Shown here: piece after piece, positions 50,331-52,745 of the stretch
Position numbering within the stretch: the stretch's first letter is position 1
How the letters are laid out: each line of letters opens with the position of its first letter
Assembly: GCF_000211475.1 (NCBI RefSeq)
Contig: NC_015474.1
Coordinates: forward strand, 310,001 to 374,000
Length of the DNA: 64,000 nucleotides
From: Pyrococcus sp. NA2
GTDB taxonomy: Archaea > Methanobacteriota_B > Thermococci > Thermococcales > Thermococcaceae
Reading direction: 5' to 3'
Made by a program: the position numbers and the translations under genes
Notes under the pieces: generated by a model
The model's database searches: none
What the model was told of the DNA's origin: nothing
What the model saw: only the letters and a program-made list of their open reading frames with translations

Positions 50331-50594
50331 TTAGATTATCTCAACGTAATCCCCAAGGGCCTGGCCAGGAAGGCCCTTCTCAAACCTAGCCCTCACAGCT
50401 CCTTTCGTTCCATGAACCCTAACTATCTTTCCCTTGAGCACTTTACCACTTGGACTTCTCCAAATAACTAACCTCCCAATCAACTTTGAAGCTTCCTCTC
50501 TGCTGTTTATATCGAGGGGTTTAATTATCATGACATTTGTATGCTGATTTTCCTTGCTCCTCCTGTAACTTAGAACAACACCCTTTATTCTCAT
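50331..50594 (-). CDS. rpl35ae: Ribosomal protein L35Ae
   Basis: The 87-residue product is L35Ae, a small beta-barrel protein of the archaeal/eukaryotic large subunit. It begins [18 protein letters not shown] and has [34 protein letters not shown] (in part). It is upstream of trm1 in the same direction with a 27-base gap and is probably co-transcribed with it. GGTGGTGAG precedes the ATG. Confidence 0.95.
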
Positions 50595-50692: not shown

Positions 50693-51697
50693 ATGAAGGT
50701 AAAGGTCGGAATAAATGGATATGGAACTATAGGGAAGAGAGTTGCATACGCTGTAATGAAGCAGGACGACATGGAGCTAGTGGGAGTTACAAAAACAAAA
50801 CCAGATTTTGAAGCCTACAGAGCAAAGGAACTTGGAATAGATGTTTATGCAGCGAGTGAGGAGTTCTTGCCAAGATTCGAGAAAGCGGGATTCGAGGTTG
50901 CTGGAACACTTAATGATCTTCTTGAGAAAGTCGACATAATAGTTGATGCAACTCCTGGAGGAGTTGGAGCAAAGAACAAGCAACTATATGAAAAGGCAGG
51001 TGTCAAGGCAATATTCCAAGGAGGAGAGAAGGCAGATGTGGCTGAAGTTTCCTTTGTTGCCCAAGCAAATTATGAGAGTGCAATTGGAAAGAACTATGTT
51101 AGGGTAGTGTCATGTAATACCACAGGGCTCGTCAGAACACTTAATGCCCTTAGAGAGTACATAGACTATGTATATGCGGTTATGATAAGGAGAGCCGCAG
51201 ATCCAAACGATACAAAGAGAGGACCAATAAATGCAATCAAGCCAACCGTTGAAGTTCCTTCTCATCACGGACCAGACGTCCAAACTGTAATTCCCGTTAA
51301 CATTGAGACAATGGCCTTCGTTGTGCCAACAACATTGATGCATGTTCACTCGATAATGATAGAACTTAAGAAGCCGATTACAGAGAAGGACGTTATAGAC
51401 ATCTTCGAAAACACAACAAGAGTTCTCCTATTTGAGAAAGAGAAAGGATTTGAGAGTACTGCCCAGATAATAGAATTTGCAAGAGATCTACACAGAGAAT
51501 GGAATAACCTATACGAGATTGCAGTGTGGAAAGAGAGCATAAGCGTTAAAGGAAACAGATTATTCTACATCCAAGCTGTACACCAAGAGAGTGATGTTAT
51601 TCCTGAGAACATAGATGCAATAAGGGCGATGCTTGAACTAGCCGATAAGGAAGAGAGCATAAGGAAGACAAATAAGAGCCTCGGAATTCTCAAATGA
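50693..51697 (+). CDS. gap: Glyceraldehyde-3-phosphate dehydrogenase (archaeal)
   Basis: The 334-residue protein is the phosphorylating archaeal GAPDH. Features are the Rossmann loop [13 protein letters not shown], the catalytic Cys141 in [13 protein letters not shown] and [16 protein letters not shown]. In Thermococcales glycolysis runs through the ferredoxin-dependent GAPOR, so this enzyme mainly serves gluconeogenesis. I start it at the ATG at 50693 ([11 protein letters not shown]); five further upstream codons are unsupported. The next gene downstream is the DUF1884 protein discussed below. Confidence 0.96.
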
Positions 51698-51706
51698 TTC
51701 CCTTCA

Positions 51707-51728
51707 TTTTTTTAGAAATCTATATAAA
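51707..51728 (+). promoter_or_regulatory. T-run ending gap and TATA of the DUF1884 gene
   Basis: Seven T (51707-51713) lie 9 bases after the gap stop and could terminate its mRNA. TATATAAA follows at 51721-51728, with a predicted start near 51751, so the DUF1884 gene probably has its own short-leader transcript containing GAGG, though readthrough from gap is possible. Confidence 0.55.
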
Positions 51729-51762
51729 CACGTTCAAAAACTATTCTTAATGAGGACAGGAC

Positions 51763-52080
51763 ATGCAAAAGAACAACGTAATCGTGAGTCTCATAGAACT
51801 TTTGAATACAACCATAAACGAGCTCAAAAGAGAAGGAGTCGAGCCAGATATAATTCTCGTCGGTCCTGAATTCAAAAGGTACTTGAATGAGGAAGTCCTT
51901 AACATGATAAAGATGAAAGTGTACGTTATAGAGGAACTAGGTAGCGATGCCGTTATAGCTGATTCCCGATATTTAGGGCAACTTAAAAAAGCCTCCAGAA
52001 GAATTTCCATAGAACCCCTCATCCAAGAGAGTGAATGGGAAAAAATCTTGGAGGAGCTTCCGGAAGTTAAGCTAGAATAA
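51763..52080 (+). CDS. DUF1884 protein, candidate single-domain (A-domain) encapsulin-like protein
   Basis: The 105-residue protein is an alpha/beta domain: helix [15 protein letters not shown], strand [15 protein letters not shown], strand [23 protein letters not shown], then a charged C-terminus. The pattern 'x-P-D-x-I-L-V-G-P-E-F' and 'V-I-A-D-S-R-Y' matches the DUF1884 family as I remember it. From memory, a P. furiosus member (PF0899) has a known structure that resembles the A-domain of HK97-type capsid proteins, and such genes sit next to a few metabolic enzymes, including GAPDH, as Family 4 encapsulin-like systems. Its position right after gap fits. Assembly and cargo binding are not shown by sequence. 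Confidence 0.7.
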
Positions 52081-52671
52081 AGCTAAAAGGTTGCCAAGCC
52101 TCTTCTTTAGTATGTAGCCAAGACCTCCTCCTATCACTATTCCAGAAACTGCCTGTACTATGTCGTTATACAACTCTCCTATGGCTCCAGCGGGTCCATA
52201 TAGAACGTATGCCACCGAGACGTAACCAATGACCATCACAATACCACCAAGAACCGTTCCCAAGAGGATTTTACTGTAGTTTGCCTCCCCTCTCGAGAAG
52301 TAACCCACTATCAATCCCTCAGTTCCCTTGATGACCAAGGTGAAGAGAGCCCATGAGGGGTAACCAATTAGATCGGCCAACGCAGAGCCAACGCCTCCAG
52401 CAAAACCACCCACTAGAGGTCCAAAGAGAACGGCTGCTAGCATTATCATTATGTCACCAAAGTTAAGGTAACCCTGGGAGGCTGGAATTGGAATCCTAAC
52501 TACCATCGTCATTGCAGTGACCAGAGCCGCCATGACAGCCGATATGGCTACTGTTTTTGCAACCTTGAACTTTTCTCTATTTAGATATATGTAAACAAAG
52601 TACACGACAGTGATTATGGCAACGATTGCCTTAAAATACGGTACGTAAGCTTCCAATGTTGCCTCATTCAT
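52072..52671 (-). CDS. ECF transporter substrate-binding (S) component
   Basis: The 199-residue membrane protein has six hydrophobic helices and the S-component hallmarks: [43 protein letters not shown] and [25 protein letters not shown] (in part). S components capture vitamins and share an EcfA-EcfA'-EcfT module. The subtype resembles the riboflavin/HMP-like group, and its divergent neighbour is thiL, so hydroxymethylpyrimidine or thiamine is a reasonable but unproven substrate. Start ATG 52671 after GGTGGGGG. Confidence 0.8.
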
Positions 52672-52745
52672 TACCCCCACCATCTAAAAGTAAAACTTGA
52701 TCTAGAATATAAAGGTTAAGTCTGACTTTCATAGAGGTGATTGAC

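What the first reader, a model, noticed from the sequence alone, without database searches (positions are those of the whole stretch)
50693..52080. GAPDH followed by a DUF1884 protein: a possible single-domain encapsulin-like system
A 105-residue alpha/beta protein follows gap by 65 bases on the same strand. From memory, its family (DUF1884) has a structure resembling only the A-domain of HK97-fold capsids, and such genes in hyperthermophilic archaea lie next to a few enzymes, GAPDH among them, as 'Family 4' encapsulin-like systems. What it does to GAPDH is not known. The sequence shows the pairing, a T-run after gap and an independent TATA, so the stoichiometry could be set separately from GAPDH. 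An oligomer that binds or coats the tetrameric enzyme would be a new way of compartmentalising or stabilising gluconeogenesis.
Basis: partly seen in the sequence, partly recalled or inferred. Interest (0 to 1): 0.85.

Follow-up and report, generated by a model that had tools for sequence, protein, structure and literature searches.

The report
Pyrococcus GAPDH–A-domain encapsulin gene pair
A heat-loving archaeon carries, right after a sugar-metabolism enzyme gene, a tiny relative of virus-shell proteins; the pairing was already published in 2021, and here it turns out to be special to Pyrococcus, where it took the place of an older partnership with another enzyme that this lineage has lost.

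Summary
Its predicted fold matches 2PK8 and then mostly HK97-fold capsids and encapsulins.

What is added here: the pairing is not conserved across Thermococcales. It occurs in 8 of 8 assessable Pyrococcus genomes, one of them with a gene inserted between, and in 0 of 75 other 4B loci. In those 75 the upstream gene is deoC, usually overlapping by 4 nt. All eight near-complete Pyrococcus genomes lack deoC, yet the convergent ribU gene next to 4B is the same. Five other genomes lost 4B cleanly and kept deoC. So 4B is a dispensable accessory whose enzyme neighbour was swapped once. Within Pyrococcus the adjacency is no better conserved than the surrounding eight-gene block.

Most likely it is an accessory that binds GAPDH, not a closed compartment (moderate confidence). 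A separate promoter is plausible but not statistically supported.

The parts
50693..51697 (+). gap: phosphorylating type II (archaeal) glyceraldehyde-3-phosphate dehydrogenase, 334 aa
   Evidence: TIGR01546 608 bits, PF02800; phmmer to PDB 2czc 4e-208
51707..51713 (+). run of 7 T after gap, possible terminator; not present in all Pyrococcus
   Evidence: read from sequence; comparison
51714..51728 (+). BRE/TATA-like element AGAAATCTATATAAA, candidate promoter of the 4B gene
   Evidence: aligned block kept in 7 Pyrococcus; not above shuffles by matrix score
51752..51755 (+). GAGG, candidate ribosome-binding site
   Evidence: read from sequence
51763..52080 (+). Family 4B A-domain encapsulin-like protein (PF08967/ENCP4, formerly DUF1884), 105 aa
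   Evidence: 2PK8 by sequence 1.9e-9 and by fold 9.9e-07; model pLDDT 81.6
52072..52683 (-). ribU-like ECF riboflavin transporter S component, convergent, overlaps the 4B 3' end by 9 nt; the conserved neighbour of 4B across Thermococcales
   Evidence: PF07155; cluster c0 downstream of 4B in 71 loci
50331..50594 (-). ribosomal protein L35Ae-like gene, divergent from gap; part of the eight-gene block shared by all Pyrococcus compared
   Evidence: name of the family from general knowledge, not searched

Best explanation
The gene encodes a Family 4B A-domain encapsulin-like protein: a single small domain with the fold of the HK97 capsid A-domain (shown by profile and fold comparison). In the other Thermococcales it is the second gene of a tight deoC-4B operon. 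In the Pyrococcus ancestor deoC was lost and a rearrangement placed the 4B-ribU pair behind gap; the gene was kept under purifying selection (shown by comparative genomics). Most likely (inferred) it forms small homo-oligomers that bind the surface of an oligomeric enzyme, here the GAPDH tetramer and elsewhere DeoC. It would act as a dispensable accessory that stabilises or organises the enzyme under heat or oxidative stress, rather than as a closed shell.
For: 4B model score. AlphaFold model matching 2PK8, then Mtb encapsulin (rmsd 2.1 over 70 columns, prob 0.98), T. maritima encapsulin and HK97. gap directly upstream in 7 Pyrococcus and separated by one inserted gene in an eighth; deoC upstream in all 75 other loci; deoC absent from all 8 near-complete Pyrococcus. 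Purifying selection. PMC8346489 reports that GAPDH and this A-domain protein form a stable complex in P. furiosus, citing Menon 2009. DeoC and GAPDH of T. kodakarensis are both among stress-abundant proteins (PMC4473059).
Against: Binding to GAPDH was not tested here and Menon 2009 could not be read; from memory, it scored co-fractionation of adjacent-gene products, so adjacency was part of the evidence. Adjacency arose once and is no better conserved than the flanking genes. G011 has a permease-like gene between the two. Few 4B residues are Pyrococcus-specific (I11 and the C-terminal tail), so no clear sign of a new interface.
Confidence: 0.42

Rival explanations
1. The gap-4B adjacency is a relic of the rearrangement that removed deoC. 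4B has its own promoter and serves another partner, common to all Thermococcales, so the neighbour enzyme says little about function.
For: One event only; the whole trm1-L35Ae-gap-4B-ribU-thiL-ogt-TPR block is kept in all 8 Pyrococcus. Spacing is 48-70 nt rather than an overlap. P. furiosus gap is listed as a single-gene transcript (PMC4706686). One Pyrococcus has a gene between. 4B and deoC are lost independently of each other.
Against: Reported complex with GAPDH in P. furiosus (PMC8346489). Other A-domain genes also keep an enzyme gene just upstream (PMC8346489).
Confidence: 0.3
2. 4B proteins assist enzymes that make or use glyceraldehyde 3-phosphate (DeoC releases it, GAPDH forms and consumes it), by shielding or channelling this heat-labile metabolite.
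For: The only two 4B partners, DeoC (75 loci) and GAPDH (8 loci), share this metabolite (pathway knowledge).
Against: Only one swap event, so the shared metabolite may be chance. No ligand pocket was tested. deoC persists without 4B in five genomes.
Confidence: 0.15
3. 4B self-assembles into a closed shell that encapsulates GAPDH, a true miniature encapsulin.
For: A-domain fold; hypothesis offered in PMC8346489.
Against: The 105-aa protein has no counterpart of the HK97 E-loop, P-domain or N-arm that join capsomers (length and model; general knowledge of the fold). 2PK8 crystallised as a dimer (PMC8346489). No GAPDH-specific cargo peptide: its C-terminal SLGILK is also in Sulfolobus GAPDH.
Confidence: 0.08

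Closest known systems
Family 4B A-domain encapsulin, GAPDH operon type (Andreas & Giessen 2021, PMC8346489; Pfam PF08967; NCBIfam NF041191)
   Same: Same family, same upstream enzyme, same genus; essentially the published system.
   Different: The paper calls it a two-gene operon; here the spacing, a candidate own promoter and one interrupted pair make a shared transcript doubtful, and the pairing is confined to Pyrococcus.
Family 4B A-domain encapsulin, DeoC operon type
   Same: Orthologous by sequence and by the shared convergent ribU neighbour.
   Different: deoC overlaps the 4B gene (usually 4 nt) in the other genera; deoC is missing from Pyrococcus.
Family 4A A-domain encapsulin PF0899 (PDB 2PK8), sulfhydrogenase type
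   Same: Same fold; a second member lies in this genome.
   Different: About 33-38% identity, an extra loop between the helices, other partner enzymes.
Classical (Family 1) encapsulins and HK97-fold capsids
   Same: A-domain fold (Foldseek).
   Different: Full capsid proteins with E-loop, P-domain and N-arm that form shells; 4B has the A-domain only.

Membership tests
Family 4B A-domain encapsulin-like proteins | Match above the curated cut-off of the family model | tested here: met
   NF041191 136.3 bits (cut-off 90); 4A model 49.2 and 4C 14.2, both below cut-off
Family 4B A-domain encapsulin-like proteins | About 100 residues with the A-domain fold of HK97 capsids | tested here: met
   105 aa; model pLDDT 81.6; 2PK8 E 9.9e-07, then about 35 of the first 50 PDB matches are HK97-fold capsids or encapsulins, none of these with E below 0.001
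Family 4B A-domain encapsulin-like proteins | Enzyme gene (GAPDH or DeoC) directly upstream | tested here: met
   gap 65 bases upstream
Family 4B A-domain encapsulin-like proteins | Two-gene operon (co-transcribed) | tested here: inconclusive
   Spacing 48-70 nt, TATA-like block kept but not above shuffles; P. furiosus gap listed as singleton
Encapsulin nanocompartments (strict definition) | Complete HK97 fold | tested here: not met
   Only an A-domain-sized protein
Encapsulin nanocompartments (strict definition) | Self-assembly into an icosahedral shell | not testable with these tools
   Needs purification and electron microscopy
Encapsulin nanocompartments (strict definition) | Dedicated cargo-loading signal on the enzyme | tested here: not met
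   GAPDH C-terminus TNKSLGILK resembles a Family 1 cargo peptide but is shared with S. solfataricus GAPDH 1b7g (TNESLGILK)

The most novel reading that the evidence does not exclude
4B is a portable accessory for enzymes of glyceraldehyde 3-phosphate: when Pyrococcus lost DeoC, the protein was handed over to GAPDH, keeping a role in holding or channelling this heat-labile metabolite near 100 C.
Probability: 0.12. Interest if true: 0.75.

Novelty: already known. Interest (0 to 1): 0.36.

Why it matters
The pair itself is published. The partner swap found here turns a vague hypothesis into a natural experiment: the same small protein sits with DeoC in most Thermococcales and with GAPDH in Pyrococcus, and is missing from a few species that keep both enzymes. 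Comparing these tells whether A-domain proteins are enzyme-specific, metabolite-specific or generic, and whether they form shells at all.

Tried and rejected
1. A cargo-loading tag on GAPDH (C-terminal [10 protein letters not shown]): rejected, since Sulfolobus GAPDH ends in the same letters. That Sulfolobus lacks DUF1884 rests on the published distribution and on the control genomes, in which the family rang in none. 2. A viral source: no relatives in phage or plasmid records or viral contigs and no PHROG match. 3. A statistically supported promoter: a matrix trained on 36 divergent-pair upstreams did not separate the intergenic regions from shuffles (114 of 500), although they score above the matching stretch of deoC. 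4. deoC in Pyrococcus: the one weak hit (G009 contig C134) is on a contig 99% identical to a Thermococcus genome, so probably a contaminant. 5. Menon 2009, the source of the co-purification claim, is not held. 6. The T. kodakarensis interactome paper mentions neither protein.

Full report
OBSERVATION. The stretch is as described. gap runs from 50693 to 51697 and is the phosphorylating type II archaeal GAPDH. After 65 bases comes a 105-aa ORF at 51763-52080. It hits PF08967, now titled 'Putative type 4B encapsulin shell protein', and the NCBIfam 4B model at 136 bits, with 4A and 4C below their cut-offs. The family is in 92 of 94 Thermococcales genomes and in none of the other genomes searched in the same phylum. 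No relatives were found in phages, plasmids or viral contigs. The gene is under purifying selection but evolves faster than gap.

FOLD. A model built from 22 window and locus sequences has pLDDT 81.6. The only PDB match with E below 0.001 is 2PK8, the Family 4A protein PF0899. About 35 of the following top-50 matches are HK97-fold capsids or encapsulins, such as M. tuberculosis encapsulin (rmsd 2.1 over 70 columns, prob 0.98), T. maritima encapsulin and HK97 itself. The viral library likewise returns many major capsid proteins, none with E below 0.001. The A-domain assignment therefore holds by consistency of the matches, not by any single strong score.

ALREADY PUBLISHED. Andreas & Giessen 2021 (PMC8346489) define Family 4, place GAPDH and DeoC systems in 4B, and hypothesise binding or encapsulation. 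They cite a P. furiosus proteome study for a stable GAPDH-A-domain complex. That study could not be read here. From memory, it called complexes by co-fractionation of products of adjacent genes, which would make the adjacency part of the evidence.

NEIGHBOURHOOD. Positions of gap and 4B across 94 genomes and 82 extracted loci show a clean split. In Pyrococcus the gene upstream of 4B is gap: 7 direct pairs including the window, plus one genome (G011) with a divergent permease-like gene between them. In all 75 other 4B loci it is deoC, usually overlapping by 4 nt (coordinates). deoC is absent from all eight near-complete Pyrococcus genomes. The single trace, in a Pyrococcus MAG, sits on a contig 99% identical to a Thermococcus genome. 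The convergent downstream gene, an ECF riboflavin transporter S component, is the same in both groups, which marks the 4B genes as orthologous. Hence deoC-4B-ribU is the likely ancestral order and gap-4B a Pyrococcus replacement.

INDEPENDENCE. Five genomes without 4B (G073, G076, G078, G087, G093) keep deoC and ribU next to each other with roughly 15 to 180 nt between the tblastn-matched stretches, so 4B was cut out cleanly. These fall in three genera, so probably at least three losses. DeoC and GAPDH sequences of these genomes are not visibly more diverged than in relatives. So 4B is dispensable for both enzymes. Within Pyrococcus the eight-gene block trm1-L35Ae-gap-4B-ribU-thiL-ogt-TPR is found in all eight genomes, so conservation of the gap-4B pair is not special evidence for function.

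PROMOTER. Direct gap-4B spacings are 48-70 nt. A TATA-like block aligns in all seven, but its matrix score is within that of shuffled sequence. The T-run is absent from three of the seven. In P. furiosus gap is listed as a single-gene transcript with TrmBL1 bound upstream under gluconeogenic conditions (PMC4706686). A separate promoter is likely but not shown.

MECHANISM. Shown: A-domain fold, 4B membership, partner replacement, purifying selection, dispensability. Reported by others: a complex with GAPDH. Inferred: binding of small oligomers to the enzyme surface with a stabilising or organising role, perhaps under stress; in T. kodakarensis both partner enzymes are among stress-abundant proteins (PMC4473059). 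Unproven: any shell. The absence of the other HK97 domains and of a GAPDH-specific cargo peptide argue against a classical compartment. That the two partners share glyceraldehyde 3-phosphate is suggestive but rests on one swap.

IDENTITY OF GENOMES. Genome names are not given by the tool. Lengths 1738505, 1765118 and 1716818 match, from memory, P. horikoshii, P. abyssi and P. yayanosii. The L128 GAPDH matches PDB 2CZC over the residues compared by eye. 'Pyrococcus' for genus g1 rests on this.

Noticed in passing
L144 4785-9765 (G000:C1, about 1551284-1556264): The second A-domain protein (4A) of this genome is separated from the sulfhydrogenase genes by three opposite-strand ORFs (including an ABC transporter ATPase), while in other Pyrococcus it follows the hydrogenase subunit by about 35 nt.
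   Followed up: partly
L010-L031 (4A loci): 4A also shows a neighbour difference: sulfhydrogenase in Pyrococcus; OsmC-like, MarC-like or other genes elsewhere, with a convergent conserved gene (MERWKIIKAFTLGPLLEATIPKPGNV...) downstream.
   Followed up: partly
G000:C1:1486201-1486761 (L092, L151): The genome also holds a Family 1 (Linocin_M18) encapsulin.
   Followed up: no
L127, L109, L115, L108, upstream of gap: TCAC-N5-GTGA, the core of the Thermococcales glycolytic motif bound by TrmBL1, lies upstream of gap in these genomes; it is not seen upstream of gap in the window, G006 or G004.
   Followed up: no
G009:C134 (L180): Contig of a Pyrococcus MAG that is 99% identical to a Thermococcus genome: probable contamination.
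   Followed up: yes
L175-L179 (G073, G078, G087, G093, G076): Clean loss of the 4B gene with deoC and ribU left side by side.
   Followed up: partly
window 52072-52080: The 4B gene and the convergent riboflavin transporter gene overlap by 9 nt at their 3' ends; overlap or near-contact at this junction recurs across Thermococcales.
   Followed up: no
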